DNA of 64,000 bases from Caprella mutica (lineage: Eukaryota > Arthropoda > Malacostraca > Amphipoda > Caprellidae): NCBI GenBank assembly GCA_947561585.1, contig CANNZV010001051.1, positions 62,001 through 126,000 of the forward strand, in the 5' to 3' direction. The notes under the pieces were generated by a model. The model saw only the letters and a program-made list of their open reading frames with translations. It searched no databases and was not told where the DNA came from. Shown one piece after another: positions 19,516-51,503 of this stretch. Every line of letters starts with the position of its first letter. Positions within the stretch are counted from its first letter, which is position 1. The translations under genes and the position numbers were made by a program.

Positions 19516-19918
19516 TGCTTTATTGCTCTAAGTTCTTAGAGGCTCTTCCTTATCTTCACGTTATGTTCTAAGTCTAAATAACCAAGAGACGGAAGAGAGA
19601 TTACCCGTAACGTGAAGTAACTGAAATATTCTACTTAAACTCCGTGGATTTTTTTTTACAAAAATTTGGTGAATGAAAGAGCGGTTTCTATGAATATTTA
19701 TTGTTTCTATAGTTGCTAATGTGATATATGAACTTATATACAGAGAAGCACAGGCTAAAATGTACAGGTTATTAATTTAAACATGTACATAATTTACAGA
19801 GTGGCCCGATGTATCGACTTGACCAAAACATATCAACTAAAGTGTGCACATATTGTATTTACAATAGTTTGCATATAAGAACAGAAGAAAAGCATCACTA
19901 GTGTGCTAGAAGCGACTA
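19516..19918. other. AT-rich DNA
   Basis: Nothing recognised upstream of MITE copy 1. Confidence 0.5.
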
Positions 19919-20132
19919 GGGTAAGTTCTTAATTATCGGTCAGTTCCACATTTCCGGACACATAAGAAAAAAATATATAATGATTATTATTTGACTTTAA
20001 TTTTAATTGGTATCCTTGATACATACAGGTATAATGGATACCAATTAAAATTAAAGTTAAATAAAAATCATTATATATTTTTTTCTTATGTGTCCGATAA
20101 TGTGGAACTGACCGATAATTAAGAGCTTACCC
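19919..20132. mobile_element. MITE, GGGTAAGTTC family, copy 1
   Basis: Terminal inverted repeats gggtaagttcttaattatcg / ttaagagcttaccc extend into a nearly full-length palindrome of 214 bp. TA duplications at 19917-19918 and 20133-20134. Tc1/mariner-like by target site. It is the best-preserved copy. Confidence 0.88.
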
Positions 20133-20489
20133 TAAATAATAATAGCGAGGCATTAGTGGGTATCAAACAAGCAACACTACGCATCAACCAAACAAATACA
20201 AAAAAAGGTAAAAAATAGGAATGTGACGCATCTGGTAAAACAAAACAAAAATATTATGTTGTTATTATTTGTAATGTTGTTATTATTTGTAATGAATTTT
20301 GAGCAGCATAACAATAGACAAAGTAATGATTGTTACAATGATGAGTGACACTAGTATATAACCAATGTGTTACAAAATACTATTACTTCATTATCTAAGT
20401 TTTTATTTAACTTATTTATTTCATTTCTAAATAACGTGACACTTGATGTTATAAATTCAGACCTAATAACATATCACAAAGTATATTAG

Positions 20490-20849: not shown

Positions 20850-20999
20850 CGTGACGTCACAGTAGCACATCGTGACGTCACAGTAGTACATCGTGACGTC
20901 ACAGTAGCACATCGTGACGTCACAGTAGCACATCGTGACGTCACAGTAGCACCACGTGACGTCACAGTTGCACATCGTGACGTCACAGCAGCACGTTAC
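20850..20999. promoter_or_regulatory. Seven-copy CRE (TGACGTCA) tandem array, 21-bp period
   Basis: The palindrome TGACGTCA, the consensus for CREB/ATF bZIP dimers, starts at 20852, 20873, 20894, 20915, 20936, 20957 and 20978, exactly 21 bp apart. The unit begins cacatcgtgacgtcacagta. The first and sixth copies have CACGTG (an E-box) overlapping. All copies lie 50-180 bp past the PDZRN stop codon. Function is inferred from the motif alone; the array may simply be a minisatellite. Confidence 0.6.
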
Positions 21000-21032: not shown

Positions 21033-21449
21033 TCAAACAGTAGTGACTGAGAGTAGCCCTACTCCCCCCGCGTTGTTTTGGGGTGGAGGACATGAGGGTG
21101 GGGGAGGTAGGAGTGGTTGTGGGGGTCTCTTGGAGCTCACAACCACACCCATTGGACTGTTGGGTGAAGTGGGTGTGGTTGACTGTTGGTTGCTTTTGTG
21201 ACTAGATTGGTTGAAGTTAGTGAGTTTGCGGCTAGAGTTGATAACGGGGGGAATATTAGTGGAGGATTTCCTGTAACGGGGGTCCCTCCATAGCTCCTGG
21301 TGGCTGGAGTTATCCACAGTGGCTGTTGTTCTGGTGGGCGTCACCCCGATGTTGTTATTCACTCTTATCACCTCTTCTTTCCTCTTTCTCTGTTCTCTTT
21401 GCCTCTCCAAGTGTCGTTTGCGATCTTCTTTCGACCAGAAGCGACCAAC
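21033..21449 (-). CDS. PDZRN3: PDZRN exon l: C-terminus with PDZ ligand SVTTV
   Basis: The acceptor ccttgtgttgcag precedes GTTGGTCGC; the stop TGA is at 21033-21035. It encodes [20 protein letters not shown], the counterpart of GRYWSKEERKQHL in PDZRN3, then an Asn/Ser/Pro-rich region with a proline run ([11 protein letters not shown]), and ends GLLSVTTV. The terminal T-T-V is a class I PDZ-binding motif shared with vertebrate PDZRN3/4. The Pro-rich middle is lineage-specific. Confidence 0.94.
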   Translation of the reverse strand, partial: VGRFWSKEDRKRHLERQREQRKRKEEVIRVNNNIGVTPTRTTATVDNSSHQELWRDPRYRKSSTNIPPVINSSRKLTNFNQSSHKSNQQSTTPTSPNSPMGVVVSSKRPPQPLLPPPPSCPPPQNNAGGVGLLSVTTV

Positions 21450-24400
21450 CTGCAACACAAGGAAGCCAATTAAAGTAAATAGAACAAACATTTTCCCCTC
21501 TTATCACTTAGTAAAAGGTCTTAATCTGAGACACACAGTCTTAATCTGAGACACACAGTCTTAATCTGAGACACACAGTCTTAATCTGAGACACACAGTC
21601 TTAATCTGAGACACACAGTCTTAATCTGAGACACACAGTCTTAATCTGAGACACACAGTCTTAATCTGAGACACACAGTCTTAATCTGAGACACACAGTC
21701 TTAATCTAAGACACACAGTCCTAATCTGAGACACACAGTCCTAATCTGAGACACACAGTCCTAATCTGAGACACACAGTCTTAATCTGAGACACACAGTC
21801 TTAATCTGAGACACACAGTCTTAATCTGAGACACACAGTCTTAATCTGAGACACACAGTATTAATCTGAGACACACAGTCCTAATCTGAGACACACAGTC
21901 TTAATCTGAGACACACAGTCTTAATCTGAGACACACAGTCTTAATCTGAGACACACAGTCTTAATCTGAGACACACAGTCTTAATCTGAGACACACAGTC
22001 TTAATCTGAGACACACAGTCTTAATCTGAGACACACAGTCTTAATCTGAGACACACAGTCTTAATCTGAGACACACAGTCTTAATCTGAGACACACAGGT
22101 TCCAAGTTCTCCCTGTAAGCTTTGGTCTGATGAAAGGCACTGAAGTGCATCAACTGTAATTTTGATACACTTATGTGGTGCAAGAGGTTCAAAGTGTTTC
22201 AGTGCGATGCACTTTAGTGTCTACTAAATTACTCTCATCATTTCTACGAAGGATGATTCGAGGCACTAAAGTGCATTGCACTGAAACACTTAAGTACATC
22301 TAAATTATAATTAATGCACCTAAGTGTCTTGCTTTAGAGACTAAGCTAATAGGGTGAACCTGAGTGTCTCAGAATTATTTTGAGTGTTACTAAAATAATA
22401 TTATAGACTTATGAATATTTCAGTCTGTTCATAAGGAATGTATATGAATTTATTTAATTTATGACAAAATACAAACTCTTTCTGGAATTATTCTACATCA
22501 TCAGTTTTGGAGATCAACATGTTATTGTTTGATAATCACATTTTATATTCCTACTCTAATTCTTAATTAAAACAAATATAAACTGTAAGTATAGACAACT
22601 GAAGCTGCCTTTACCCAAGTTGTCTACGGCAACCAATTGCAGTCGCTAATTTTATCTATTGACTTATTTCATAAAATCTTCATTCAATCTCTAACAACAT
22701 ACCAACCAACCTACAACCAAAGTAATGTCAAGAGAATCGGGGTAACAGTCTCTACAACCAAAGTAATGTCCAGAGAATCGGGGTAACAGTCTCTACAACC
22801 AAAGTAATGTCCAGAGGCCATACTAAAAGTCTAGCTACTAGTCCAGGCATATGAAGTCTCACCACTAAATTTTTACCATAGTAAACAGAATAGTATAGTA
22901 CCCCAGTTCCATGTATTATTTAAATTTATTCTGGGTAGGCTGTGACATTATGTATGTAAACAAGAGGTCACGTCATAGTAAACAGAATTGCTGTGGGTCA
23001 CGTGGAATAGAGAATTAAGATGGCGGCCAACATGACCGATCTGACTAATGATCTAATTATCTTGAATAAATCGTCTTCAAGACTAAAAATTTGTTACTAT
23101 TTTGGGTGTAAAAAGACCAGTAGCAATTTCATCAACAGTCATTTTTTTAGTTTTCGTCCGCATGAATATAAAGATTAGATAATAGCATGCGGTAATGTGG
23201 AATTAAAAAAAATATCACAGAAAACGTTATTTAACAAAAGTTGGGTGTGTTGCAGCCATCTTTTGTGTTTGTACTGTACGTACAAACGTACGCACCATTG
23301 TTGACATGTGACGTCACAGCCTACCGGGACACGCGTAATATCCCCCCTATAGCTCTGGGATACTATATATTCTCTGTACTGTGTTTTTACCATCATTTAT
23401 ACTGTCTGTAGAACGTCAGACTGCAGCAGAGTGTTCACTGTCACCCAATATCTTATCACACGTTTCTCTCGACACTTTCAAAATACTTCTCATTATCCTG
23501 TTTTTTTTCTAGCGTTTATTTATTACTTTCAATTTTATTGTGTTTAATCAATTTCCACATGTGGGTGCCATAGTTGAATGTTCGGCATATTGTATGACTA
23601 ACATGAAAGTAAATAGATTACCTTTAGTTCAGATATGTTGTCATCATCTGTAGTCATTCCTCCCCTCTCTGCATTGATTCTTAGTGCTCTCTCGCGGCGA
23701 CTTTCTCGCCTTCTCTCGCTGTTTACATTACGGCGAGTGATGTACCTAGTGCCGTCTGGTCGAACTTTCACCTGAGTAAAAAAGTGGTGATGAGAATGAA
23801 GTCAAATTAAAAAAAAATTGCATTGCGTAAAATTTTCATACTAGAAAAGTATTGAGTAATAACATACCTTCCATTCCATCCTAGGTATTTCGTTTGCTAT
23901 TAAATGTTCACATTCATGATTATTACAACAATTAGAGGCGCCATTTTGTCTGTTCTTGCAAGGAGTGCCGCCATTTTGTCCGTTTCTGTATGGTTTGACT
24001 AAAGACTGTTGGAATATCTGTTGCTGGAGCCATATCGTCTGCTGAAGGTTGGCTGGGTCAGTATAGACAGTTTGTGAGTTGTTAGAGTAGTACTGTTGAC
24101 TGCTGTGCTTTATATTGCAGCAGGGAGTTGCCTTGACTTTAGCTGCAAAGCCATGGTGCATAGTATGGCTGAACTGCTGTGGAGTGGGAGTCATTCCTTG
24201 AGAAATGGCTGACAGTCGGCCAGCCGAGTGAGAGGTGGACATTAGAGGCATTTTCGGGTGGGGGTTGCCTTGCTGATGGCTGATATTGTTACGAATGTTA
24301 TTCTGAGAGACATTGCGATGATTCCTATGCTCACAACATTGCTTTGGACATGAATTGGATATCTGTGGAGCAGAAGAAGACAAATAGTCAAAGAACAGCC

Positions 24401-27400
24401 ACTATCAAACAACTGTTGCAATATTACATGCAATTACATTGTATGTGTCCTAAGAAATCTCACCTGTTCGTTACTAGGAGCATTAAGAGTGAGAGTTGAG
24501 GCCTGTAGACTAGGGTCTGACTTCAAACTAAGTCTTAATGGAACAGGCTTAATAATCACTGGTTTGCTAGGCTCAGTAACCTAAAATAGAAAACAATTAC
24601 TCATTGAGTGGATAATTTTGTTAAGTAATATATATTATTATATAAATAGAGATCATTTATACAATATTTAAAGTTAACTTCAGTACTTTTATACAGCTAA
24701 GTTATTTAGTCTCCAACCTGGTGGTTGCTGCCCGTACTCTCCCCGGTGTTGTAGGCGGAGGAGGAATCTCTGTGGTCGCACGTGCAGTCCTCCCCCATCA
24801 AAGAATTATTCTCCACCACCCACTGCTCCACCGACTTCCTCTTCTCTCTATCACAGGACAAGGACTTTGACTCCCGCATGCTCCTGGAAGTGTTCCCCCG
24901 GTTGAACTGGTTGGTAGTGCTACCGGTGGAAGAGTTGCTGCTCTTGCTGCCCCGGGTGCCCCGTGGGTCGCTTGGTGAGCGGGTCATTTTGTTATCACTG
25001 TTCTCAGTGCGAGAGACACAGAAGGAGTTGGAGTGCTTCATAGGCACCTTAGAGGCTATCCTTCTACCAGTCTTACCAGCCTCGTAAGGCATGCAGTAGA
25101 TTGGCTCATCGGACTCAGTGATGTCTGGAATAGACTCGTAGATGTGATCTGAGTCAGTGGCGTTGGTGAGAGAGGGTAGAGTCATGGGGGCTCTCAGGAG
25201 CCTCTTCTTGTCTATCTTATTCTTGAGGGAATCTTTACTCCCTGTTACTTTGTAGACAGAAATGCCTGTCTCCTCCAACTGTCTACATTCCTTAACCACT
25301 TTCTCCATCTGTCTGTCTATGGATACCAGCTCTCTGTCTATTGTGTTGAGACCCTTATCATCTGTGGGGGAGTGCGCAGACTCTGTCACAGTAGACTCCT
25401 CTTTGGGAGTGGTGCTCTGTTCTTCTCCTCCACTCTCCTCAGTCTCCTCCATCAGACAACTGATGGTGTTGGTGGGAGGAGCTACTGGTTGAATCCTGTA
25501 GAAACTGTCATAGAGAGAGAATTGTCACTGACGTCATTTGAAAACATGAGCTTGATGGCAATTAGCTTATTGCAATTTATTGTCGTGAAACAGTTTTAAA
25601 ATCACTTTCATTGAAGATATAATTATTTTATTATTTAAATAGGATTTTTTTAATACACAGTTTATTGTAAGGTAAATTGATGCTACTCTGAGTCCCTGTA
25701 CTAAAAACAAAATTCAACTCATTTGATTATTATTGATATTTAGTTAACTGCAAGGTAATGAAGCAGAGTGATACATTTAACATTTTTATTCACAGAAGAA
25801 TGCTTTTGTTACTTCTTTCGATATGAAACTTTAAGCTAGTTGAAGCTAATTTGTAAAAAAGAACTTCAATCACCTGGTAGCACTGAACTACCAGCACTCA
25901 CCTGGTAGCACTGAACTACCACCACTCACCTGGTAGCACTGAACTACCACCACTCACCTGGTAGCACTGAACTACCAGCACTCACCTGGTAGCACTGAAC
26001 TACCAGCACTCACCTGGTAGCACTGAACTACCAGCACTCACCTGGTAGCACTGAACTCCTCATTAGCGTCTGACATTCCACACTCCTCACTCTCCACAGC
26101 CAACTCATCCTCCAGTAAGTCACCCTCCTCTAGATCATCCTCATCCTGCAAAGATAAATCACATCAGTAAATCAGAGGGTGTAACGTCTGCTGCAACTGT
26201 TACGGACTTTAGTTCAAAATTAATACAACTAAGTATTTGTACAGTAACCTCTAAAATAATAGTTTCACAAGAGTCTCGAATGTTTTAATTAATATTTTTT
26301 GTTTCGTTAACCAAATAGCCCAAACTCTCAAATACCGCTTAATACTTTGGTTCTAGGGGAGTTGCCACGGGGCGAATTGCCACTGTTTGAATTGCCACTG
26401 TGGGAACTGCCCATTTGGGTGAATTGCCGCTGGGTGAACTGCCCATGTGGGGGGATTGCCACTGGGTGAATTGCCCATGTGGGAGAATTGCCACCGGGGA
26501 ACTGCAAATGTGGGGGAATTGCCACCGGGGAACTGCAAATGTGGGGGAATTGCCACTGGGTGAACTGCCCATGTGGGGAATTGCCACTGGGTGAACTGCC
26601 CATGTGGGGAATTGTCACTGGGTGAACTGCCCATGTGGGGAATTGTCACTGGGTGCCGATGATACCTTAAACTGTTAAACCCTTGAAAATATACAGTGAT
26701 AAAGTTCCTTTCAATATGTCCTTATTTGATATTCGTGCTATCTTTATCCATTATTTTCGGCTGTGAAGCGCCCCTCCCCCCCACTTATATTGGTACACCG
26801 ACAATTGGGCCCAGGACAATTGAGCCCTACGACAATTGGGCCCCAAAACAATTGAGCCCAGAAAAAATTGGACAGAAGACACAATCAAGTAGTGTTACTT
26901 TTTATTACTAGAGCAGTGACAATATTATCTTTGAAATATGCTTTATAGTCTCTATCTTTTTAAATTATAATCCGAAGTCCAATTGTCGTGGGGCCCAATT
27001 GTCCTGGGCCTCAATTGTCCTAGGCCCAACTGTCGGCGGGGCCAATTGTCGGTCCATGCTTATATTAAAAGGGGGGGGGGTACACCTAAACACACGGGGC
27101 GAGTGTGTTTTTAGTTCATCCATCTTGTGTACGTAGTGATGCAGTCAGTGAGAGTTGTTTACCCAGTGACAATTCACCCAGTGGCAATTCACCCACATGA
27201 GAAGTTCACCCAGTGGCAATTCACCCACATGAGCAGTTCACCCAGTGGCAATTCGCCGTGCACCAATACTTTCTTCCTAAATCCATATGTATGTTATTCA
27301 ATGTATAGGCCTAGCCATTAAATGTGGCGATAGTACCTTTGATAGGCCTATAGGATATGTCAGAGAGAGCACTTTTCTCTGGCAGAACTGGCTGAATACC

Positions 27401-30400
27401 GCCATATTTGCTAAACAGTGTATTTTCAAATTTGTGTCAATAAAATCATAACCGGTTGTTACCCACTTCTATTTTCTGTATAATTGATAGACAATAATTA
27501 AATCAGTTACTAAATTATGGAAATAAAGTAATGAACAATTTATTCCGGAGTGATTAGTTCACATATAAATCTAATCCCATTAAAGCAGAAGTCTAGCGTC
27601 AATTCTCAAACCCCAGACGTGGTCATAAGACAACCAGAAGCCTCTTTCCTGACGTCAAAAGGACACAAAATAGCACAGAATATTTACGAACAGAAGGAAA
27701 AGTAAAGTGAAATTTGTCAAGTGATAGTGATAGTATGGTTTACGTAACACTGTGTTAAGTGATAGTATGACTTACGTAGCACTGTGTTAAGTGATAGTAT
27801 GACTTACGTAACACTCTGTTAAGTGATAGTATGACTTACGTAACACTGTGTTAAGTGATAGTATGACTTACGTAGCACTGTGTTAAGTGATAGTATGACT
27901 TACGTAACACTGTGTTAAGTGATAGTATGACTTACGTAACACTCTGTTAAGTGATAGTATGACTTACGTAGCACTCTGTTAAGTGATAGTATGACTTACG
28001 TAGCATTGTGTTCGTGAGACTAGTAGCGTTACTTTCAGTTTACAGCTCTTGAAGAGATCTTCTGTTTGAACTCTCGTGGAGAGCTCCGTCCCATCCATCT
28101 GAAACACAAGAAACACTCAGTATTGTCATCTGAAACACAAGAAACACTCAGTATTGTCATCTGAAACACAAGAAACACTCAGTATTGTCATCTGAAACAC
28201 AAGAAACACTCAGTATTGTCATCTGAAACACAAGAAACACTCTGTATTGTCATATGAAACACAAGAAACACTCAGTATTGTCATCTGAAACACAAGAAAC
28301 ACTCAGTATTGTCATCTGAAACACAAGAAACACTCTGTATTGTCATATGAAACACAAGAAACACTCAGTATTGTCATCTGAAACACAAGAAACACTCAGT
28401 ATTGTCATCTGAAACACAAGAAACACTCAGTATTGTCATCTGAAACACAAGAAACACTCAGTATTGTCATCTGAAACACAAGAAACACTCTGTATTGTCA
28501 TATGAAACACAAGAAACACTCAGTATTGTCATCTGAAACACAAGAAACACTCAGTATTGTCATCTGAAACACAAGAAACACTCTGTATTGTCATATGAAA
28601 CACAAGAAACACTCAGTATTGTCATCTGAAACACAAGAAACACTCAGTATTGTCATCTGAAACACAAGAAACACTCTGTATTGTCATATGGAACACAAGA
28701 AACACTCAGTATTGTCATCTGAAACACAAGAAACACTCAGTATTGTCATCTGAAACACAAGAAACACTCTGTATTGTCATATGAAACACAAGAAACACTC
28801 AGTATTTTCATCTGAAACACAAGAAACACTCTGTATTGTCTTATGAAACACAAGAAACACTCAGTATTGTCATCTGAAACACAAGAAACACTCAGTATTG
28901 TCATCTGAAACACAAGAAACACTCTGTATTGTCATATGAAACACAAGAAACACTCAGTATTGTCATCTGAAACGCAAGAAACACTCAGTATTGTCATCTG
29001 AAACACAAGAAACACTCTGTATTGTCATATGAAACACAAGAAACACTCAGTATTGTCATCTGAAACACAAGAAACACTCAGTATTGTCATCTGAAACACA
29101 AGAAACACTCTGTATTGTCATCTGAAACACAAAAAACACTCAGTATTGTCATCTGAAACGCAAGAAACACTCAGTATTGTCATCTGAAACACAAGAAACA
29201 CTCAGTATTGTCATCTGAAACGCAAGAAACACTCAGTATTGTCATCTGAAACGCAAGAAACACTCAGTATTGTCATCTGAAACGCAAGAAACACTCAGTA
29301 TTGTCATCTGAAACGCAAGAAACACTCAGTATTGTCATCTGAAACGCAAGAAACACTCAGTATTGTCATCTGAAACACAAGAAACACTCAGTATTGCCAT
29401 CTGAAACACAAACAAATATTAAAGTAGGTAGGTATTTTCACTGTAAAAATAGTTTAGAAAAAATAAAGTTGAATTATGAGATTCTTCTAATAAATGAAAA
29501 GTTAATTTAAGTTAAGTTAATTCAATAATATTTACTCTCTGGAACTTACTGATTTTATATTCAAAATTCTTTAGTGTAAAATTGAAAATTGTAATAATCA
29601 TACATGAATTACGTTGAAATAATGAACTAGATTACCTGCAGAATTTGATCCCCTATTTTTATTCTACCATCTCTGGCTGCAGGTGAGTTAGGCTCTATTT
29701 GCGACACCAGAACTTCAGTCAGGTACTCAGGCTGTAGCTGAGAAAAGAAATACTTCAGTCAGTCTCTAAAGGCGAGAGTTAGTTTTCTATGAACTACCGT
29801 GATGTTTAAAGGGTCACTAGAGAAGAAATGAGTTTGTCTCTGTTTAATTCTTAGGGAATTCATTTATTGTTCAATTGAATGTTAACACAAAGTGACACTC
29901 TTAGTAGTACCATAAAAACTCTGAACACTATTTCAAGTTATGTTAATGTTTCATTAAATAATTTCTGGCAAATAATAAAGAAATTCCACCTGCTTGTTTT
30001 TGGTCTTCTCTTCCTCTTGCTCCGTCTTCACCGGTGAAGCCGGAGGCTCCATGGAGGAATTGGCAGCAGCTCCCCGGGGGTTGTAAAAAAGGGTGAGGCC
30101 TAATTTCTCCTCCATTGAACTCCTCTCCAATATTATTTCCTAGAAAAGAAGCAATTAAAGTTGAAAAACAACTGGGAAGAATCTCAAAAAGGAACAATTT
30201 AATGATATTTGAAATGACTCTTGTACTAATACACTAATGGAGTTCACCACACCTCTAGTCAATATCTAGTGATAGGAACAAGTATCACCATATCAGTTAA
30301 CTATCTGATAGCTTACTAATGTTTCTAATTTTTGTCACCGAAATCTTATAATAAAATTAGTTGCCTTCAGTTAGAAATAAAGTTTCAGTTCTTTTTATAA

Positions 30401-33400
30401 TATAATAGTTATGTACTTACAAATATGTTTGAATGTTTCCTTTGCTTATTCAAATATAGTATGTCATACAGAAAAGAAAATGATGTAATTTATTAGCATT
30501 GCATTAAAATAGGACATAAGTATTTTCTTATTTAAGAAAGCGTCACTATATTAAACTATAATTAATGGCTATATTAAAGTACCAGTAACCACCACATGGT
30601 TGCTAAGTACCAGTAACCACCACATGGTTGCTAAGTACCAGTAACCACCACATGGTTGCTAGAGTACCAGTAACCACCACATGGTTGCTAGAGTACCAGT
30701 AACCACCACATGTTTGCTAGAGTACCAGTAACCACCACATGGTTGCTAGAGTACCAGTAACCACCACATGGTTCACTGACTACCAGTAACCATGCTAAGT
30801 TGTTTACAATGGTGCACGTGCCCTGACGATCTGTTTAGAGCTGAGTAGGGAGCTTTTCCTGTTGTTTACATCTAGGCGCTACATCACAGTGTGTGTTTAC
30901 TCTGCTTCACTCCTCCACAGCTTCACATTCTGCCACTCTGCTCACTATGCAGATAAGCTTTTATATTGCAGTCATTTTCACAGTGAAGAAATGCACACAC
31001 ATTGAAATTGATTCACTCTATCAAATAGTAGCAGCCTTTTCTCCACAGTGTGGCGCAGTGAGTTGGTGAATATGCGCCACTGCCTTGTAGACAGTGTGGC
31101 GCAGTGAGTTGGTAAATATGCGCCACTGCCTTGTAGAGAGTGTGGCGCAGTGTTAGCGTAAGCGGATTATCCGCTGCACACGAAATCACCTGCAATATTG
31201 CGCCTACGAAAGCCTATAGCAGTCACATCTCCATTTGATCGGGTTAGAGTCAATGGAATGCATATTAAAGTACAAATCTGATTAAGACTACCTATACATT
31301 TCGTGTGATAGCTAATATTAATATACTGAATGCATGTGATAGAGCATCTATAGACTATTCCGTCAGAAATTGAAGGGAAAATAAATAATAATGGTTACAA
31401 AATTGATTTAGAATCCAGCGTTTCGAAAATATAAAGAATATCTATTTTTTAAATTATATGCAAAATTTACCTTTTTCAATAAGTGAAAAATATTGAAAAT
31501 AAAAGCTTCTAAAGAAAGTGTTCAGTATTTAATGTCACGGTGCATTAACCGACGAGTATAGTTAGTAATAGTTACATATTAACTATATGTCAAGCTATAG
31601 GTTATACTTGCCATAAAACATGTGATGAGTGACGATATCGTAAGAAATGTATCGGTACTCTCCCCACTTCTCTCACCTCTAATCACTTCTCTCACCTCTA
31701 ATCACTTCTCTCACCTCTAATCACTTCTCTCACCTCTAATCACTTCTCTCACCTCTAATCACTTCTCTCACCTCTAACTACTCACCTCTAATCACTTCTC
31801 TCACCTCTAACTACTCACCTCTAATCACTTCTCTCACCTCTAACTACTCACCTCTATGTCTATCTCTTGCTCCAGGTACTGCGAAAGACTCTGCGGTAAG
31901 TCACCGGGGAAGACGTAGTCACCCTCGGGTGAGGAGTTCGGGGATGGGGGGAGGAGGGGCACCTCGGGGGAAGTCAGTGGGGAATGCACTCTACTCCCCT
32001 CTCCTGTAATGGGGGAAACATATCAATGGGGCAAACATCTTAATGGGGTAAAATCCCAATGGTAACATAGGTTTATAATCTTCACAATAGTTATCTGTTC
32101 AAACTACCAAAAGTTCACAGTTTTTCTCACCAATGGGACTCCTTCTATCCACAGCCACAGCAGCAGCTGAGATGATAACACTATCCTCGGGTGAGTTCTC
32201 TCCCCCCGGGGGGTGGAGTGGTGGGTAGCATCCCCCCACCCACCCCCCTTCAGATACCATCCACACCCCAGTCAGCAAAGACATCTGCGGAGATGAGAAT
32301 ATTATCACCTTCTGCATTTAGTATACATATAGCCTAGTATTGGAGAGGTAAGAACTATTATCACCTATATAATGTATTTATGTACATAAATTTAGCTCAA
32401 TTTTTCAATTTGCACAGTCTCGAGAATGCGCTGCACGTTTTTTACCCCTTTAACCCCTAATGCCGAGCCTTCTGAAGTTGAATACTAATAAATGTGTATA
32501 TCATTATTATATAACCCCCTGCCAGGTCATGAAACAATCATGAATTGTGCACTACAACAAACTTTAGTGTGGACATTACGCCAATGGACATTACGCAAAT
32601 GGACATTACGCAAATGGACATTACGCCAATGGACATTACGTAAATGGACATTACGCCAATGGACATTACGCCAATGGACATTACGCCAATGGACATTACG
32701 CAAATGGACATTACGCAAATGGACATTACGCCAATGGACATTACGCAAATGGACATTACGCCAATGGACATTACGACAATGTACATTACGCCAATGGACA
32801 TTACTCCAATGGACATTACGACAATGGACATTACGCCAATGGACATTACTCCAATGGACATTACTCCAATGGACATTTGGCCGAAAAACAATTGCGCATG
32901 TACTATTAGATAGGAATTGTTGAGAAGAAATCCTTAGAGTCTAACCCATCACTGCGTGGTGTATCATATGTACTATAATCAAATGAATATAAAAATAGAG
33001 CAGAAAAACTTAATTTCACATTACATATGAAATCTTTAGTTAGGAAAAATTATTTCTCGCACTTTTGAACTTAATAAATTTGTATGTTAGATTAATATTC
33101 AAAAATTCCTCTCTAATTTCAAATTTCATTCCCAATAATTGTATATTCTCAAATGATTTTGTTTCTGTTTAAAAATACAATACTTTCCTATTAAATATAA
33201 ATGAATAATTATCTCATTTGATTGAAATATCTGTCGTGAAACACCTTCATTTATTGCAAATAAAGTGCCTGAAGAATTGCAAATAAAAGTTCTTATGAAT
33301 GTATTCGATAGAATGATTAATAAGTCCAATATACAATATATATGTCCAATGTCTTCCTAACACTTACACAGAGTTTAATACAACCTAAAATAAACCAAAA

Positions 33401-35276
33401 GTTGACTATTGAGTAGTTCAACTGTGCCACATATGTACCACTGCACTACAGTCAGATAAGAGTATATATTGCACCCATCTGACTGGTATGTTAAACACAC
33501 ATCATATCAATACTAGCCAATAGAGATGTGTGCCCTAACGCTATTACCAAATTACAAGCTAGCTACATGTCAAAGGCAATCATTACTGAGCCAAACTATG
33601 TTACACATGGCTATTAGAGCTGTAATGACTTCAGTTGATGAGTAACTATTGGTAACTATTGGTAGAGAGGTGTGAAAGATACCTTGTAACTATTCTGTTA
33701 CTCTTTACTCTTTCTTAGTAACTATTCTGTTACTCTTTACTCTTTCTTTGTAACTATTCTAATACTCTTTACTCTTTCTTTGAAAGGTATTTGGCACCCT
33801 AATGTTGACTCTTTTCCTGAAGGGTTAAATAACTCCATTTACCAACAAAATGAGCCACAAACAGCAGTGTCAACATTCAAATGCAGTGATGAGTTATGCC
33901 CCTAACTGAGGCAATGCAAGTAATGTGACAAATAAAACAGAAACTACAATGAAAAATATAGTGGTGAGTTAACGCACTTCACAGCTACTCACTCACCATA
34001 ACTAGAGAGTAACTCACTCACTCTAACTAGAGAGTAACTCACTCACTCTAACTAGAGAGTAACTCACTCACTCTAACTAGAGAGTAACCCAATCACTCTA
34101 ACTAGAGAGTAACTCACTCACTCTAACTAGAGAGTAACTCACTCACTCTAACTAGAGAGTAACCCAATCACTCTAACTAGAGAGTAACTCACTCACTCTA
34201 ACTAGAGAGTAACTCACTCACTCTAACTAGAGAGTAACCCACTCACTCTAACTAGAGAGTAACTCACTCACTCTAACTAGAGAGTAACTCACTCACTCTA
34301 ACTGGAGAGTAACTCACTCACTCTAACTAGAGAGTAACTCACTCACCATAACTAGAGAGTAACTCACTCACTCTAACTAGAGAGTAACTCACTCACTCTA
34401 ACTGGAGAGTAACTCACTCACTCTAACTAGAGAGTAACTCACTCACCATAACTAGAGAGTAACTCACTCACTCTAACTAGAGAGTAACTCACTCACTCTA
34501 ACTAGAGAGTAACCCAATCACTCTAACTAGAGAGTAACTCACTCACTCTAACTAGAGAGTAACTCACTCACTCTAACTAGAGAGTAACCCACTCACTCTA
34601 ACTAGAGAGTAACTCACTCACTCTAACTAGAGAGTAACTCACTCACTCTAACTGGAGAGTAACTCACTCACTCTAACTAGAGAGTAACTCACTCACCATA
34701 ACTAGAGAGTAACTCACTCACTCTAACTAGAGAGTAACTCACTCACCATAACTAGAGAGTAACTCACTCACTCTAACTAGAGAGTAACTCACTCACCATA
34801 ACTAGAGAGTAACTCACTCACTCTAACTAGAGAGTAACTCACTCACCATAACTAGAGAGTAACTCACTCACTCTAACTAGAGAATAACTCACTCACTCTA
34901 ACTAGAGAGTAACTCACTCACTCTAACTAGAGAGTAACTCACTCACTCTAACTAGAGAGTAACTCACTCACTCTAACTAGAGAGTAACTCACTCACTCTA
35001 ACTAGAGAGTAACTCACTCACTCTAACTAGAGAGTAACTCACTTCAGTTTGTGTCTCCATGCCAGTTATTTTCTCCCTTCCTCCTCCATTCACGATGTTG
35101 TTGTTGTTGTTGTTGTACTCTGGCTGTACTTTTCCACCGGGTGAAGGGGGGTTCTCCCCCACAGGTGTGTCCCCCACTCTCCTCTTAGTCACTTCCACCA
35201 TTATTGGTTCGTTGGCAGAGTTGAAGACTGAGACAGCTTCGTCATGGGAGAGGCAGCTAACGTCCTCCCCATTCAC
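21033..35276 (-). CDS. PDZRN3: PDZRN3/PDZRN4-like (LNX3-type) E3 ubiquitin ligase, 3' part, 12 exons
   Basis: Twelve exons with GT-AG junctions join in one frame: 35276-35043, 32284-32131, 32003-31852, 30139-29990, 29737-29636, 28098-28000, 26145-26042, 25495-24718, 24580-24464, 24362-23868, 23771-23622, 21449-21033 (stop TGA). They encode 983 residues. Order: second half of PDZ1, linker, PDZ2 ([10 protein letters not shown] to LLVSR), acidic segment, coiled-coil-like segment ([17 protein letters not shown]), SAYNTGES, and the C-terminal block RMEWK / PDGTRYIT / MTTDDD / GRFWSKE, ending SVTTV. From family knowledge, vertebrate PDZRN3/4 share these blocks in this order and also end in SVTTV; they are cytoplasmic RING ligases (PDZRN3 acts on MuSK and in Wnt/Dishevelled signalling). 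The RING and zinc-finger N-terminus is not in the exons found, so ligase activity is inferred from homology. Most introns over 0.5 kb hold tandem arrays or transposons; most others are about 100-250 bp. PDZRN3 versus PDZRN4 cannot be decided. Confidence 0.93.
21520..22099. repeat. 20-bp tandem array, about 29 copies
   Basis: The unit is agtcttaatctgagacacac with scattered single changes (cctaatc, taatcta). It starts about 70 bp upstream of the acceptor of the last PDZRN exon. On the minus strand each unit reads gactgtgtgtctcag, a pyrimidine-rich run ending in CAG like a splice acceptor. Confidence 0.97.
22187..22299 (+). other. Imperfect hairpin, about 30-bp arms
   Basis: The arm aagtgtttcagtgcgatgca continues to actttagtgtct and pairs with aggcactaaagtgcattgca plus ctgaaacactt. 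The two non-Watson-Crick positions are G-U wobbles if the plus strand is transcribed. The loop is about 45 nt and holds a further TCATC/GATGA stem. It could be a small hairpin RNA or a MITE core. Confidence 0.4.
22695..22815. repeat. 39-bp tandem repeat, about 3 copies
   Basis: The motif acaaccaaagtaatgtc is repeated three times, with agagaatcggggtaacagtc between copies. It lies in the last PDZRN intron. Confidence 0.85.
22870..23391. mobile_element. P-element-like insertion with 8-bp target duplication
   Basis: TTTTTACC flanks the element on both sides (22870-22877 and 23384-23391). The ends are imperfect inverted repeats: the left reads cagaatagtatagtacccca from 22885, and the right, reverse-complemented, reads agagaatatatagtatccca. 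A second matching stretch, ggtaggctgtgac, occurs further in on both arms (22929-22941 and 23318-23330). An 8-bp duplication fits the P and hAT superfamilies; the internal THAP-like frame points to P (P transposases start with a THAP domain). At about 506 bp it is non-autonomous. It lies in the last intron of the PDZRN gene. Confidence 0.65.
23020..23226 (+). pseudogene. Broken THAP-domain reading frame
   Basis: An ATG at 23020 opens 52 codons: a hydrophilic start, then [16 protein letters not shown] and [13 protein letters not shown], followed by TAG at 23176. CYYFGC matches the C-x(2-4)-C start of a THAP zinc finger and FFSFRP its following Phe/Pro motif. Past the stop the same frame reads [11 protein letters not shown], as expected after the conserved Trp of THAP domains, so the TAG stands where TGG (Trp) is expected. 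A further Cys-Cys-Ser-His segment occurs in another frame near 23250. The ATG sits in AAGATGGCGGCC, close to the TISU initiator/YY1 motif. It is antisense to PDZRN inside the P-like element, probably a transposase N-terminus remnant. Confidence 0.6.
23392..23621. other. Intron remainder between P-like element and PDZRN exon k
   Basis: AT-rich intron sequence with no recognised feature beyond the donor at 23621-23620 (minus strand). Confidence 0.5.
23622..23771 (-). CDS. PDZRN3: PDZRN exon k: conserved C-terminal module
   Basis: The acceptor ttttttactcag precedes GTGAAAGTTC; the donor is CTAAAG/gtaatc. It is 50 codons, phase 0. It encodes [16 protein letters not shown], an Arg-rich stretch ([13 protein letters not shown]) and [24 protein letters not shown] and MTTDDD are near-identical to vertebrate PDZRN3, which makes this the most diagnostic exon. 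Confidence 0.95.
23868..24362 (-). CDS. PDZRN3: PDZRN exon j: Gln/Asn/His-rich linker ending RMEWK
   Basis: The acceptor ttctgctccacag precedes ATATCCAATT; the donor is GGAAG/gtatgt. It is 165 codons, phase 0. The sequence is low-complexity and rich in Asn, Gln, Cys and His ([29 protein letters not shown]). It closes with IPRMEWK, the start of the conserved C-terminal module of PDZRN3/4. Confidence 0.92.
24464..24580 (-). CDS. PDZRN3: PDZRN exon i: linker
   Basis: The acceptor attttag precedes GTTACTGAGC; the donor is GAACAG/gtgaga. It is 39 codons, phase 0 at both ends. It encodes [20 protein letters not shown] and ends APSNEQ. No domain is seen. It was placed by open frame and matching phase; the introns on either side are 137 and 101 bp. 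Confidence 0.82.
24718..25495 (-). CDS. PDZRN3: PDZRN exon h: coiled-coil-like and Ser-rich linker
   Basis: The acceptor acagtttctacag precedes GATTCAACC; the donor is CACCAG/gttgga. The exon has 778 bp, phase 2 in and phase 0 out. It encodes [10 protein letters not shown], an acidic Ser/Thr-rich part, a probable short coiled coil ([19 protein letters not shown]), [18 protein letters not shown], an [15 protein letters not shown] stretch, a Ser/Asn-rich region, and SSAYNTGES near the end. SSAYNTGES is a signature block of PDZRN3/4. The first exonic ATG is at codon 15, but no start is needed because the frame continues upstream. Confidence 0.93.
25496..25867. other. Intron between PDZRN exons g and h, non-array part
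   Basis: AT-rich intron sequence. The acceptor for exon h is at the 25496 end. A single TGACGTCA occurs near 25530. Nothing else is recognised. Confidence 0.5.
25868..26057. repeat. 28-bp array copying a splice donor, 7 copies
   Basis: The motif cacctggtagcactgaacta starts at 25871, 25899, 25927, 25955, 25983, 26011 and 26039. On the minus strand each unit is TTCAGTGCTACCAG/gtgagt, i.e. the last 14 exonic bases of PDZRN exon g plus its donor. The last copy (26039) is the real junction; six decoys follow in the intron. Confidence 0.95.
26042..26145 (-). CDS. PDZRN3: PDZRN exon g: acidic segment after PDZ2
   Basis: The acceptor ttatctttgcag precedes GATGAGGATG; the donor is GCTACCAG/gtgagt. 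Phase 0 in, phase 2 out (104 bp). It encodes [18 protein letters not shown] and ends NEEFSATR, with the Arg split across the junction. It parallels the acidic stretch after PDZ2 in vertebrate PDZRN3. Its last 14 bases and donor are copied in the 28-bp array downstream. Confidence 0.88.
26354..27265. mobile_element. Inverted-repeat element with repeat-built arms
   Basis: The left arm (26354-26655) is built from gaattgccactgggtgaact and cccatgtggggg variants. The right arm (27168-27262) contains the reverse complement, cagtggcaattcacccacat. The left arm is expanded relative to the right. A second inverted-repeat element is nested inside at 26796-27053. It is a non-autonomous DNA element by structure; I cannot assign a superfamily. 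It lies in the PDZRN intron between exons f and g. Confidence 0.6.
26796..27053. mobile_element. Nested MITE with GACAATTGGGCCC terminal repeats
   Basis: The left end has several copies of gacaattgggccc/gacaattgagccc. The right end carries the inverse, ggcccaattgtcctgggcct and ggccaattgtcggt. About 258 bp with AT-rich centre. Its position between the arms of a larger inverted-repeat element implies later insertion. Confidence 0.6.
27722..28010. repeat. 32-bp array copying a splice donor, about 9 copies
   Basis: The motif tgatagtatgacttacgtag repeats every 32 bp. On the minus strand each unit reads GTGCTAC/gtaagtcat, the donor of PDZRN exon f. The copy at 28000 is the real junction. Confidence 0.95.
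28000..28098 (-). CDS. PDZRN3: PDZRN exon f: end of PDZ2
   Basis: The acceptor cttgtgtttcag precedes ATGGATGGGA; the donor is TGCTAC/gtaagt. It is 33 codons, phase 0. It encodes [16 protein letters not shown], then [13 protein letters not shown], the alphaB and last strand of PDZ2. Minisatellites flank it on both sides: the 31-bp array begins at its acceptor and the 32-bp array at its donor, and each carries that splice site in its unit. Confidence 0.9.
28096..29412. repeat. 31-bp array copying a splice acceptor, about 42 copies
   Basis: The motif catctgaaacacaagaaaca repeats every 31 bp with variants (catatg, aacgcaag, ctctgta). On the minus strand each unit ends ttcttgtgtttcag/ATG, the acceptor of PDZRN exon f. 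The copy at 28098 is the real one. Related variants recur in a roughly three-unit pattern (cag, cag, ctg), suggesting block duplication. Confidence 0.95.
29413..29635. other. Intron e-f, non-array part
   Basis: AT-rich intron sequence between the 31-bp array and exon e. It ends at donor CTGCAG/gtaatc. Nothing else is seen. Confidence 0.5.
29636..29737 (-). CDS. PDZRN3: PDZRN exon e: PDZ2 core
   Basis: The acceptor tttcttttctcag precedes CTACAGCC; the donor is CTGCAG/gtaatc. It is 34 codons, phase 0. It encodes [20 protein letters not shown] and then [11 protein letters not shown], the standard PDZ beta3-alphaA-beta4 pattern (hydrophobic-x-x-I-x-P-x-S-x-A-x-x-D-G-R-I-x-x-G-D). This is one of the clearest domain matches in the window. 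Confidence 0.95.
29990..30139 (-). CDS. PDZRN3: PDZRN exon d: start of PDZ2 (carboxylate-binding loop)
   Basis: The acceptor ttcttttctag precedes GAAATAATA; the donor is AAGCAG/gtggaa. It is 50 codons, phase 0 at both ends. [11 protein letters not shown] is the first strand and LGLT loop of PDZ2 (compare KLGLTVCY in vertebrate PDZRN3). It continues with a Pro/Glu/Lys-rich segment ([19 protein letters not shown]), an insertion of about 30 residues in the beta2-beta3 region compared with the vertebrate protein. A longer overlapping minus-strand frame is a shadow. Confidence 0.9.
30140..30574. other. Intron c-d, AT-rich part
   Basis: It holds the acceptor of exon d and AT-rich sequence without recognised features. 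Confidence 0.5.
30575..30785. repeat. 28-29-bp tandem array, 7 copies
   Basis: The motif agtaccagtaaccaccacat repeats with ggttgctaga between. It lies in the PDZRN intron between exons c and d and shares an ACCACATGGT core with the array at 20490. Confidence 0.92.
31045..31155. repeat. 46-bp tandem repeat, about 2.5 copies
   Basis: The unit begins cagtgtggcgcagtgagttg. It contains TGGCGCA and TGCGCCA about 15 bp apart, an inverted repeat that can form a stem. It is intronic to PDZRN. Confidence 0.85.
31156..31664. other. Intron c-d, central part
   Basis: AT-rich sequence; I see no coding, RNA or repeat feature here. Confidence 0.5.
31665..31852. repeat. 19/33-bp array copying a splice donor
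   Basis: Units are cacttctctcacctctaat, alternating near the exon with actactcacctctaat. On the minus strand they read TTAGAG/gtgagagaag and TTAGAG/gtgagtag. The exon c junction ATAGAG/gtgagt is the first member. Confidence 0.92.
31852..32003 (-). CDS. PDZRN3: PDZRN exon c: linker before PDZ2
   Basis: The acceptor cccccattacag precedes GAGAGGGG; the donor is ATAGAG/gtgagt. Phase 1 in, phase 0 out (152 bp). It encodes a Pro/Ser-rich run, then [19 protein letters not shown] and EIDIE. The tyrosine-plus-acidic stretch resembles the segment before PDZ2 in vertebrate PDZRN3. The donor is the first copy in a 19/33-bp array, and the acceptor lies next to a short 20-bp repeat. Confidence 0.85.
32004..32062. 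repeat. Short 20-bp repeat at the acceptor of exon c
   Basis: Three imperfect copies of aatgggg(g/c)aaacat are seen. On the minus strand they form pyrimidine-rich tracts ending near CAG at the exon c acceptor. It is a weaker case of the junction-linked repeats. Confidence 0.55.
32131..32284 (-). CDS. PDZRN3: PDZRN exon b: interdomain linker
   Basis: The acceptor ctcatctccgcag precedes ATGTCTTTGC; the donor is CCCATTG/gtgag. Length 154 bp, entering in phase 0 and leaving in phase 1. It encodes [14 protein letters not shown], a Pro/Gly-rich stretch, and [18 protein letters not shown]. It has no recognised fold. The reading frame was fixed by the neighbouring exons. Confidence 0.8.
32565..32882. 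repeat. 15-bp tandem array, about 21 copies
   Basis: The unit is tggacattacgccaa, with caaat, taaat, acaat and ctccaa variants. The 15-bp period keeps frames open on both strands, which creates artefact reading frames. It lies in the PDZRN intron between exons a and b. Confidence 0.96.
32890..33985. other. PDZRN intron, AT-rich, with a 3-copy repeat
   Basis: Mostly unremarkable AT-rich intron sequence. At 33690-33785 a motif gttactctttactctttctt with gtaactattct recurs about three times. No exon was recognised. Confidence 0.6.
33986..35043. repeat. 25-bp array copying a splice donor, about 42 copies
   Basis: The motif taactcactcactctaact plus agaga repeats every 25 bp. On the minus strand each unit has gtgagtgagttactctctag. 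The array begins exactly at the donor of PDZRN exon a (ACTGAA/gtgagttac). Variants (accata, aaccca, ctggag) recur in blocks. Confidence 0.96.
35043..35276 (-). CDS. PDZRN3: PDZRN exon a: second half of PDZ1
   Basis: The acceptor tctcccccag precedes GTGAATGGGG and the donor is ACTGAA/gtgagt, phase 0 at both ends (78 codons). It begins [18 protein letters not shown] and continues to IMVEVTKRR, the beta4-alphaB-beta5 end of a PDZ domain. The His of SHDEAV sits at the alphaB1 position of class I PDZ domains. After the PDZ come [10 protein letters not shown], an Asn run and METQTE, which resembles TQTD after PDZ1 in vertebrate PDZRN3. The 25-bp array starts at its donor. Confidence 0.93.
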
Positions 35277-35843: not shown

Positions 35844-36266
35844 GATGATACAGGTAGGGTAAGTTCTTCATTATCGGTCAGTTCAACATTTTCGGACACG
35901 TAAGAAAAAACGATATAATAATAATGAGATATTTTTTATTTTTATTGATATCCCTGATACCTGCAGGTATCAGGGATACCAATAAAAATAAAAATAAATA
36001 ATTATTATTATATCGTTTTTTCTTACGTGTCCGAAAATGTGGAACTGACCGATAATGAAGAACTTACTTTATAAATGTTTCATTTCTATTTATTCTTCAA
36101 GATAGAATTTGTTTATTATTTACATCTTCCTTCCCAATCTAATTTGACAGCAACGTACGCAGGACATCCTCGGGATATTGAACTCCAAATCCACTCATTG
36201 GCACTAAACATATCGAGGAAATGTTCAAAATATCCGGCGGGTGTCGTCACGACATTGAGAAAATAA
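35844..36266 (+). CDS. Candidate two-exon small gene with a MITE-derived intron
   Basis: A start in good context (cacaATGG) gives MAEDDTGR, ending AGG/gtaagttc at 35867. The next good acceptor, tatttattcttcaag, precedes ATAGAATTTG at about 36105. Joining in phase 0 gives MAEDDTGR then IEFVYYLHLPSQSNLTATY, GHPRDIELQIHSLAL and GVVTTLRK, stop TAA at 36264. The second part is more GC-rich and more protein-like than its surroundings. The MITE copy fills nearly all of the intron and supplies the donor. I recognise no family, and expression is unknown; it could be chance. It is antisense to and upstream of the first PDZRN exon seen. Confidence 0.25.
35857..36069. mobile_element. MITE, GGGTAAGTTC family, copy 2
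   Basis: It is palindromic almost throughout: gggtaagttcttcattatcg at the left, inverted at the right (gataatgaagaacttac). TA flanks both ends (35855-35856 and 36070-36071), which fits a Tc1/mariner-type integrase. It has no coding capacity. The last bases at the right end are diverged (cttactt). Confidence 0.85.
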
Positions 36267-38233: not shown

Positions 38234-41200
38234 TAGAACTGATGTCAGTCACTAGAACTACTGTCAGTCACAAGAACTACTGTCAGTCACAAGAACTACT
38301 GTCAGTCACAAGAACTACTGTCAGTCACAAGAACTACTGTCAGTCACTAGAACTACTGTCAGTCACTAGAACTACTGTCAGTCACCAGAACTACTGTCAG
38401 TCACTAAAACTACTGTCAGTCACAAGAACTACTGTCAGTCACTAGAACTGATGTCAGTCACTAGAACTACTGTCAGTCACTAGAACTACTGTCAGTCACT
38501 AGAACTGATGTCAGTCACTAGAACTACTGTCAGTCACTAGAACTACTGTCAGTCACAAGAACTACTGTCAGTCACTAGAACTACTGTCAGTCACTCGAAC
38601 TACTGTCAGTCACAAGAACTACTGTCAGTCACTAGAACTGATGTCAGTCACTAGGACTACTGTCAGTCACTAGAACTAATGTCAGTCACTAGAACTACTG
38701 TCAGTCACTAGAACTAATGTCAGTCACTAGAACTGATGTCAGTCACTAGAACTACTGTCAGTCACTAGAACTGATGTCAGTCACTAGAACTGATGTCAGT
38801 CACTAGAACTACTGTCAGTCACTAGAACTACTGTCAGTCACTAGAACTACTGTCAGTCACTAGAACTACTGTCAGTCACTAGAACTAATGTCAGTCACTA
38901 GAACTAATGTCAGTCACTAGAACTACTGTCAGTCACTAGAACTAATGTCAGTCACTAGAACTGATGTCAGTCACTAGGACTACTGTCAGTCACTAGAACT
39001 AATGTCAGTCACTAGAACTACTGTCAGTCACTAGAACTACTGTCAGTCACTAGAACTACTGTCAGTCACTAGAACTGATGTCAGTCACTAGAACTGATGT
39101 CAGTCACTAGAACTACTGTCAGTCACTAGAACTACTGTCAGTCACAAGAACTACTGTCAGTCACTAGAACTACTGTCAGTCACTAGAACTACTGTCAGTC
39201 ACTCGAACTACTGTCAGTCACAAGAACTACTGTCAGTCACTAGAACTGATGTCAGTCACTAGGACTACTGTCAGTCACTAGAACTAATGTCAGTCACTAG
39301 AACTACTGTCAGTCACTAGAACTGATGTCAGTCACTAGAACTGATGTCAGTCACTAGAACTACTGTCAGTCACTAGAACTACTGTCAGTCACTAGAACTA
39401 CTGTCAGTCACTAGAACTACTGTCAGTCACCAGAACTACTGTCAGTCACCAGAACTAATGTCAGTCACCAGAACTGATGTCAGTCACTAGAACTACTGTC
39501 AGTCACTAGAACTACTGTCAGTCACTAGAACTACTGTCAGTCACTAGAACTACTGTCAGTCACTAGAACTAATGTCAGTCACTAGAACTACTGTCAGTCA
39601 CTAGAACTAATGTCAGTCACTAGAACTGATGTCAGTCACTAGAACTACTGTCAGTCACTAGAACTGATGTCAGTCACTAGAACTACTGTCAGTCACTAGA
39701 ACTACTGTCAGTCACTAGAACTACTGTCAGTCACTAGAACTACTGTCAGTCACTAGAACTAATGTCAGTCACTAGAACTAATGTCAGTCACTAGAACTAC
39801 TGTCAGTCACTAGAACTGATGTCAGTCACTAGAACTGATGTCAGTCACTAGAACTACTGTCAGTCACTAGAACTACTGTCAGTCACTAGAACTACTGTCA
39901 GGCACTAGAACTACTGTCAGTCACCAGAACTACTGTCAGTCACTAGAACTACTGTCAGTCACTAGAACTACTGTCAGTCACTAGAACTACTGTCAGTCAC
40001 TAGAACTAATGTCAGTCACTAGAACTACTGTCAGTCACTAGAACTAATGTCAGTCACTAGAACTACTGTCAGTCACCAGAACTAATGTCAGTCACTAGAA
40101 CTAATGTCAGTCACTAGAACTAATGTCAGTCACTAGAACTACTGTCAGTCACTAGAACTAATGTCAGTCACTAGAACTGATGTCAGTCACTAGAACTACT
40201 GTCAGTCACTAGAACTACTGTCAGTCACTAGAACTACTGTCAGTCACTAGAACTACTGTCAGTCACTAGAACTACTGTCAGTCACCAGAACTACTGTCAG
40301 TCACCAGAACTAATGTCAGTCACTAGAACTGATGTCAGTCACTAGAACTACTGTCAGTCACTAGAACTACTGTCAGTCACTAGAACTACTGTCAGTCACT
40401 AGAACTACTGTCAGTCACTAGAACTAATGTCAGTCACTAGAACTAATGTCAGTCACTAGAACTACTGTCAGTCACTAGAACTACTGTCAGTCACTAGAAC
40501 TAATGTCAGTCACTAGAACTGATGTCAGTCACTAGAACTACTGTCAGTCACTAGAACTGATGTCAGTCACTAGAACTACTGTCAGTCACTAGAACTACTG
40601 TCAGTCACTAGAACTACTGTCAGTCACTAGAACTACTGTCAGTCACTAGAACTACTGTCAGTCACTAGAACTAATGTCAGTCACTAGAACTGATGTCAGT
40701 CACTAGAACTACTGTCAGTCACTAGAACTACTGTCAGTCACTAGAACTACTGTCAGTCACTAGAACTACTGTCAGTCACTAGAACTACTGTCAGTCACTA
40801 GAACTACTGTCAGTCACTAGAACTACTGTCAGTCACCAGAACTACTGTCAGTCACTAGAACTAATGTCAGTCACTAGAACTGATGTCAGTCACTAGAACT
40901 ACTGTCAGTCACTAGAACTACTGTCAGTCACTAGAACTACTGTCAGTCACTAGAACTACTGTCAGTCACCAGAACTACTGTCAGTCACCAGAACTAATGT
41001 CAGTCACTAGAACTGATGTCAGTCACTAGAACTACTGTCAGTCACTAGAACTACTGTCAGTCACTAGAACTACTGTCAGTCACTAGAACTACTGTCAGTC
41101 ACCAGAACTAATGTCAGTCACCAGAACTGATGTCAGTCACTAGAACTAATGTCAGTCACTAGAACTGATGTCAGTCACTAGAACTACTGTCAGTCACAAG

Positions 41201-42744: not shown

Positions 42745-42866
42745 TTTAAGTTAATATTATTCTATGATACCTACAGGTATCATGGAATTAAAATTAAATA
42801 TTAAATGTATAGTTTTTTCTTATATGACCGAAGATGTGAAACTAACCGATAATTCGTAACTAACCC
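42745..42866. mobile_element. MITE, GGGTAAGTTC family, truncated copy 4
   Basis: Only the right arm and the central hairpin (gatacctacaggtatc) remain; the right end reads gataattcgtaactaaccc. The left arm is lost. Confidence 0.7.
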
Positions 42867-43365
42867 TTTACTATATCACAGGACATGCCATTAATGAAAC
42901 AGTGCTAATTATTTTACTAAGGTTAAAATGTCTTTGCCATCATTTCGCCTGTAGTAAGTGAAACCACCAACAGTATGTCCGTCCCTCTAGAGGTACACAC
43001 ACCAGCTGCTGGCTTTCATTGCTAGCATGTGCTGTGCTAATCCTACGGAAGTTACCTAATTAATTAAAGAAAAAAAGGATGCAAAAACTAATGAATGGAG
43101 CTGTGTGATAGTACATAATAACGATCTACATACATACGGCATTACGGGGATACGTTCACTATTATTATACGAATTTAAAAATGACTTCGGTTACAAAGTT
43201 TGAATAATTTCCATGGTGATTAAATCGCCATAATCCACAAGAATAACCAACAAAATTATAATGCTTAAAAATCAGTACAATGTTATATATTTCACAGCTA
43301 AATTAATCATTGAACAATGAATATAAATATTTTTGTATTTTGGTAATTGATAACTAATGAAAAGT
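42867..43365. other. AT-rich spacer
   Basis: Nothing recognised. Confidence 0.5.
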
Positions 43366-51501: not shown

Positions 51502-51503
51502 TA

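What the first reader, a model, noticed from the sequence alone, without database searches (positions are those of the whole stretch)
25868..35043. Minisatellites seeded on splice junctions of one gene
Seen directly: in the PDZRN gene, five junctions (donors at 35043, 31852, 28000 and 26042; acceptor at 28098) are the first member of a tandem array whose unit repeats that same splice-site sequence 7 to about 42 times. The five arrays are unrelated in sequence and unit length (25, 19/33, 32, 28, 31 bp), so they are not one mobile satellite. Inference: some process repeatedly amplifies DNA at exon-intron borders, or arrays are tolerated only where each copy preserves splicing. This would be an undescribed coupling of minisatellite birth and splice sites.
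Basis: partly seen in the sequence, partly recalled or inferred. Interest (0 to 1): 0.85.

Follow-up and report, generated by a model that had tools for sequence, protein, structure and literature searches.

The report
Splice-site minisatellites in a crustacean gene
In one gene of a crustacean, five exon-intron borders are copied over and over into the neighbouring intron; the same oddity is known from lancelets as 'mirages', so this is a striking new case of a known thing rather than a new kind.

Summary
Five tandem arrays in a PDZRN-like gene (minus strand) run across an exon-intron border (donors a, c, f, g; acceptor f), so their units repeat that splice site. Malacostracan relatives support all five joins to about a residue and show that the exon-nearest copy is the one used in the protein. 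In this gene 5 of 16 arrays span a junction against 0.73 expected (P = 0.0003; up to 0.016 under looser rules). That test is post hoc and covers one gene. [quoted passage not shown] The arrays probably did not create the introns: each touches one junction only. In 41 other arrays splice motifs are not in clear excess on the gene's strand. A further post hoc pattern: the four array donors are the only four of eleven that read GTRAGT (P = 0.003). No second gene could be tested, because the genome search did not complete (21 tries). New member of a known kind; a birth bias at strong junctions remains possible.

The parts
21033..35276 (-). 3' part of a PDZRN / slo-interacting-protein-1-like gene: 12 exons a-l, with a stop codon at the end of exon l
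   Evidence: One open frame of 983 codons over 12 exons; best homologue Palaemon slo-interacting protein 1, E 3.3e-128, 37% identity over 84% of the query
33987..35043 (-). Array on donor of exon a: 25 bp unit, about 42 copies, each with GTGAGT-like donor; reaches 1 bp into exon
   Evidence: join TQTE|MSL in line with 4 of 11 homologues that cover it
31665..31856 (-). Array on donor of exon c: 19/33 bp units with GAG|GTGAGT or GAG|GTGAGA; reaches 5 bp into exon
   Evidence: 11 GTGAG[AT] sites in 31860-31665; join EIDIE|EIILER matched on both sides by 6 of 11 homologues
28096..29411 (-). Array on acceptor of exon f: 31 bp unit with TACTGAG, pyrimidine-rich stretch and CAG, about 42 copies; reaches 3 bp into exon
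   Evidence: join GDQILQ|MDGTEL inside a PDZ domain (10 of 11 homologues)
27726..28012 (-). Array on donor of exon f: 32 bp unit with TAC|GTAAGT, about 9 copies; reaches 13 bp into exon
   Evidence: join RTQCY|DEDDL matched by 10 of 11 homologues, one more in part
25870..26057 (-). Array on donor of exon g: 28 bp unit with CAG|GTGAGT, about 7 copies; reaches 16 bp into exon
   Evidence: join EFSAT|R covered by 11 of 11 homologues, one of them (P0011) unlike to its right
32008..32052 (-). Weak sixth case: 17 bp x 2.6 array ending 4 bp from the acceptor of exon c

Best explanation
These are mirage-type minisatellites. In an array-rich stretch of a malacostracan genome (probably an amphipod), short segments straddling existing exon-intron junctions were tandemly duplicated and then multiplied on the intron side by slippage or unequal exchange. 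Splicing goes on because the copy next to the exon stays intact, so the mRNA is unchanged and the other copies are carried as intron. Shown: the arrays, the joins at protein level, the identity of junction and intron copies, the one-sidedness of each array, and decay of part of the copies. Inferred: the duplication route, and that inner copies are seldom used. Open: why five arrays of one gene sit on junctions; birth bias, selection or post hoc luck would each do.
For: Arrays overlap junctions by 1-16 bp of exon. Homologues run across all five joins without an inserted unit, and the e-f join lies inside a PDZ domain matched by KIAA1095 1wh1, E 9.8e-9, and InaD-like 6ird, E 4e-9, so the exon-nearest copy is the one used. 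Use of the next copy would truncate or shift the protein at four of five sites. Each array touches only one junction of its intron. In the acceptor array 9 of 42 copies lost the AG and 10 changed TACTGAG, nine of them in the same copies, as expected for dispensable copies. Amphioxus mirages show the same anatomy and are reported not to interfere with splicing (PMC3087553 passages; PMC3902484 passage).
Against: No RNA was seen, so use of inner copies is not excluded; donor a's second site is in frame and open. Neutral placement predicts 0.6-1.7 junction arrays, not 5, and the array donors are the only GTRAGT donors, so plain neutral drift may not be the whole story. Intron ends of c-d reach the highest score of 200 shuffles.
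Confidence: 0.72

Rival explanations
1. Birth bias: working, strong junctions (short internal repeats such as GTGAGTGAG, or a structure linked to transcription or U1 binding) are where tandem duplication starts, so minisatellite birth is really coupled to splice sites. It adds a cause to the mirage reading rather than replacing it.
For: 5 of 16 arrays on junctions, P 0.0003-0.016; after merging one composite, 5 of 13, P 0.00015-0.0071. Array donors are the only 4 of 11 with GTRAGT, Fisher P 0.003. Five of six introns over 500 bp have a junction array against none of five shorter ones, P 0.015.
Against: Post hoc, one gene. Among 41 other arrays, GTRAGT occurs in 1 (gene's strand) and 2 (other strand) against 0.56 shuffled; three GTRAGT sites of the gene span outside arrays did not become arrays. 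Intron length and donor strength are confounded.
Confidence: 0.17
2. Selected redundancy: many copies of a splice site are kept because they help splicing (backup sites, U1 recruitment, timing).
For: Inner donors look as good as the true one; all 41 intronic rows of array a keep the GT, and the f and g donor copies keep GTAAGT or GTGAGT. Human IFI6 uses two downstream repeat units as donors (sentence in PMC4526556).
Against: 9 of 42 acceptor copies lost the AG. Use of most next copies would truncate or shift the protein. No conservation test was possible.
Confidence: 0.08
3. The arrays created these introns (tandem duplication of AGGT segments giving both ends of a new intron).
For: Tandem copies carrying splice signals are the raw material of that model (PMC4974935 passages); intron c-d ends reach the best shuffle score.
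Against: Each array touches one end of its intron only; in four of the five introns compared the two ends score within the range of shuffles.
Confidence: 0.03

Closest known systems
Amphioxus 'mirages' (Adh3, globins BflGb6 and BflGb9, troponin C; similar imperfect repeats in PGBD5)
   Same: Minisatellite-like tandem repeats over an exon-intron boundary, at donor or acceptor, with splice signals in many copies and splicing reported undisturbed (PMC3087553 passages; PMC3902484 passage).
   Different: Here: a crustacean, five arrays in one gene, up to about 42 copies, 19-33 bp units; the array donors are the GTRAGT donors. No RNA evidence here.
IFI6/G1P3 minisatellite with multiple splice donors (human)
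   Same: Repeat units that carry splice donors next to an exon (title of Turri 1995 seen in a reference list and one sentence in PMC4526556).
   Different: There two downstream units are used as donors; here the homologues point to the exon-nearest copy. The original paper was not held.
Intron gain by tandem duplication (Rogers model; Zhuo 2007 seen as a citation only)
   Same: Tandem copies carrying splice signals (PMC4974935 passages).
   Different: There the copies give both ends of a new intron; here one end of each intron is repeated.
Ordinary intronic minisatellites
   Same: Unit length and near-identical head-to-tail copies, as in the 41 other arrays of the window.
   Different: These five include a splice junction.

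Membership tests
Mirage (amphioxus type) | Minisatellite-like tandem duplication that spans an intron-exon boundary | tested here: met
   Five arrays overlap a junction by 1-16 bp of exon
Mirage (amphioxus type) | Can affect the 5' or the 3' boundary | tested here: met
   Four donors and one acceptor
Mirage (amphioxus type) | Regular splicing is not disturbed | tested here: inconclusive
   Protein homology supports the exon-nearest copy; no RNA data
Mirage (amphioxus type) | Copy-number instability between alleles or tissues | not testable with these tools
   One assembly only
Intron gain by tandem duplication | Both ends of the intron derive from the repeated unit | tested here: not met
   Arrays touch one junction each; ends alike no more than shuffles in 4 of 5 introns, c-d equal to the best of 200 shuffles
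PDZRN / slo-interacting protein 1 | PDZ domains and conserved C-terminal part | tested here: met
PDZRN / slo-interacting protein 1 | N-terminal RING domain | tested here: not met
   The RING-bearing PDZRN4 P0013 matches the window only from its residue 259 on; RING exons may lie outside the window, and the best crustacean hits have no RING in their Pfam lists

The most novel reading that the evidence does not exclude
In this genome minisatellite birth is biased to working splice junctions, above all donors with the full GTRAGT consensus, so that long introns commonly carry one array grown out of their own splice site. Mirages would then be a recurrent, convergent outcome of a splice- or transcription-linked duplication process and not a lancelet oddity.
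Probability: 0.17. Interest if true: 0.75.

Novelty: new member of a known kind. Interest (0 to 1): 0.42.

Why it matters
If the pattern holds beyond this gene, mirages are a convergent feature of array-rich animal genomes. They offer natural experiments in which up to about 42 near-identical splice sites compete and the cell must pick the one beside the exon, and they would tie minisatellite birth to gene structure. As it stands it is a clear case in a crustacean; the listings of my ten paper searches showed no crustacean one, in a library that lacks most subscription papers.

Tried and rejected
Intron birth from the arrays: judged unlikely because the arrays are one-ended and the intron ends are mostly unlike (c-d is the exception). 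One mobile satellite: rejected because the five units differ in sequence and length. A general splice-like seed for arrays: not supported in the window. Over 41 other arrays (gene's strand, other strand, shuffled mean): GTRAGT 1, 2, 0.56; AGGTRAG 0, 0, 0.11; YYYYNCAG 2, 0, 0.71; TTTCAG 0, 0, 0.26; GTGAGT 0, 2, 0.28 (shuffles keep base make-up only). The two GTGAGT on the other strand are somewhat above chance. Rfam: 0 matches in the window. Genome-wide replication failed: the genome search gave no answer in 21 tries. Stretches C4:500001-560000 and C5:20001-30000 share elements with the window, so they come from the same or a close organism, but by eye they show no host gene, only a broken Tc1/mariner-like transposase, so they say nothing about junctions. 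In the tests with 13 loci I merged four arrays of one inverted composite (26356-27254); results with and without merging are given. Only the 11 best of 43 homologues were aligned.

Full report
What is there. The window holds the 3' part of a PDZRN / slo-interacting-protein-1-like gene on the minus strand. Twelve exons (35276 down to the stop codon ending at 21033) join into one open frame of 983 codons. The protein matches malacostracan relatives (Palaemon, Macrobrachium, Meganyctiphanes, Procambarus, Cherax and others; best E 3.3e-128, 37% identity, 84% of the query). A tree of 12 proteins puts the window with the amphipod Trinorchestia, split from the other ten with support 100, but branches are long and the isopod sits with krill at support 52. 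'Probably an amphipod' is as far as I go. RING exons were not found: a RING-bearing PDZRN4 matches only from residue 259 on.

The arrays. Tandem Repeats Finder lists 71 rows, which merge to 46 arrays and cover 40% of the window. Sixteen lie in the gene. Five overlap a splice junction: donor a, donor c, acceptor f, donor f and donor g, with 1, 5, 3, 13 and 16 bp of exon inside the array. Units are 25, 19/33, 31, 32 and 28 bp with about 42, 10, 42, 9 and 7 copies. A sixth array of 2.6 copies ends 4 bp from the acceptor of exon c.

Are the junctions right? At protein level, yes, to about a residue. In an alignment with the 11 best of 43 proteins found, the joins TQTE|MSL, EIDIE|EIILER, GDQILQ|MDGTEL, RTQCY|DEDDL and EFSAT|R fall where relatives run on without an inserted repeat unit. 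Relatives matching on both sides number 4, 6, 10, 10 (one more in part) and 11 (one of them, P0011, unlike to the right of the join) of 11. The e-f join lies inside a PDZ domain that matches KIAA1095 (1wh1, E 9.8e-9) and InaD-like protein (6ird, E 4e-9); that KIAA1095 is PDZRN3 is recalled. So the protein is built from the exon-nearest copy of each site. Extending the exon meets a stop within 12, 21 and 4 nt at donors c, f and g, before the next copy. At acceptor f a site one or two copies away shifts the frame, and three copies away adds stops. Donor a is the exception: its next site, 21 nt on, is in frame and open.

Is it more than chance? That the units carry the splice site follows from the array including the junction, so the test is whether arrays reach junctions. 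Random placement of the 16 arrays gives 0.73 on junctions with up to 16 bp of exon overlap allowed, P = 0.0003 for five or more; 28 bp, P = 0.002; 40 bp, P = 0.016; with 5 or 10 bp, 0 of 6000 trials. With one composite element (26356-27254) counted once, 13 loci, P = 0.00015, 0.0019 and 0.0071 for 16, 28 and 40 bp. By distance of array ends: 2 arrays within 3 bp (P = 0.04), 4 within 5 bp (P = 0.001), 4 within 10 bp (P = 0.01), 6 within 20 bp (P = 0.002). All of this is post hoc and from one gene.

The four donors with arrays begin GTGAGT, GTGAGT, GTAAGT and GTGAGT; none of the other seven reads GTRAGT (Fisher P = 0.003). Five of six introns over 500 bp have one junction array and none of five shorter ones has (P = 0.015). 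These facts are linked and post hoc. Of 97 sense-strand GTRAGT sites in the gene span, 94 lie in arrays and 3 outside. The 41 arrays not on junctions carry GTRAGT in 1 case on the gene's strand and 2 on the other, against 0.56 in shuffled units; GTGAGT in 0 and 2 against 0.28. So splice-like sequence as such is not a clear seed of arrays here.

How it works. The most likely course is a tandem duplication straddling an existing junction, multiplied on the intron side by slippage or unequal exchange, with the exon-nearest site intact and used. The route is inference. Copies away from the exon are not all kept: 9 of 42 acceptor copies lost the AG and 10 changed TACTGAG, nine of them the same copies, so a decayed unit was itself multiplied. 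A full TACTGAG, pyrimidine-tract and CAG module is found 23 times in that array; that TACTGAG would act as branch site is recalled consensus knowledge, not tested. Each array touches one end of its intron. First and last 150 nt of the five array-bearing introns are no more alike than shuffles in four; intron c-d equals the best of 200 shuffles. So the arrays probably did not make the introns.

What is known. [quoted passage not shown] PMC3902484 (passage) names troponin C and reports similar imperfect repeats in PGBD5. Human IFI6 has repeat units that serve as donors (one sentence in PMC4526556; original not held). So the kind is known. New here are the crustacean case, five in one gene, and the link to GTRAGT donors. 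The listings of ten paper searches showed no crustacean case; most subscription papers are not in that library.

Two other animal stretches of the assembly have arrays over 9.8% (60 kb) and 7.7% (10 kb), against 40% in the window, so this locus is rich in arrays beside those two. Errors of copy number in the assembly cannot be excluded.

Noticed in passing
window 26356-27260; also L048:920-1044 with 1616-1690, and L044 6145-6274 with 6935-7032: Pairs of tandem arrays in inverted orientation some 0.5-0.7 kb apart (in the window nested: outer arms GAATTGCC-like, inner arms GACAATTGGGCC-like): perhaps a foldback mobile element whose arms are tandem arrays.
   Followed up: partly
window 19917-20134, 35859-36067, 51316-51508, 42786-42867; L046:6394-6480: A palindromic MITE-like family with copies in the window and on contig C4.
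   Followed up: partly
window 22871-23391; L048:4247-5846: A dispersed element in the last intron, 96% identical over 517 bp to a stretch of contig C5, with two more partial matches there.
   Followed up: no
window 20850-20994: A 21-bp array about 40 bp after the stop codon whose unit contains the palindrome TGACGTCA.
   Followed up: no
window 38234-42300 and 59333-63174: Two very long arrays upstream of the exons found: 19 bp x 214 and 22 bp x 174 copies.
   Followed up: no
G000 contigs C1-C3 (L001-L021): The assembly's contigs C1-C3 look bacterial: GC 0.44-0.65 and ORFs of 200 codons or more over 40-100% of each stretch, against 0% in seven animal stretches.
   Followed up: partly
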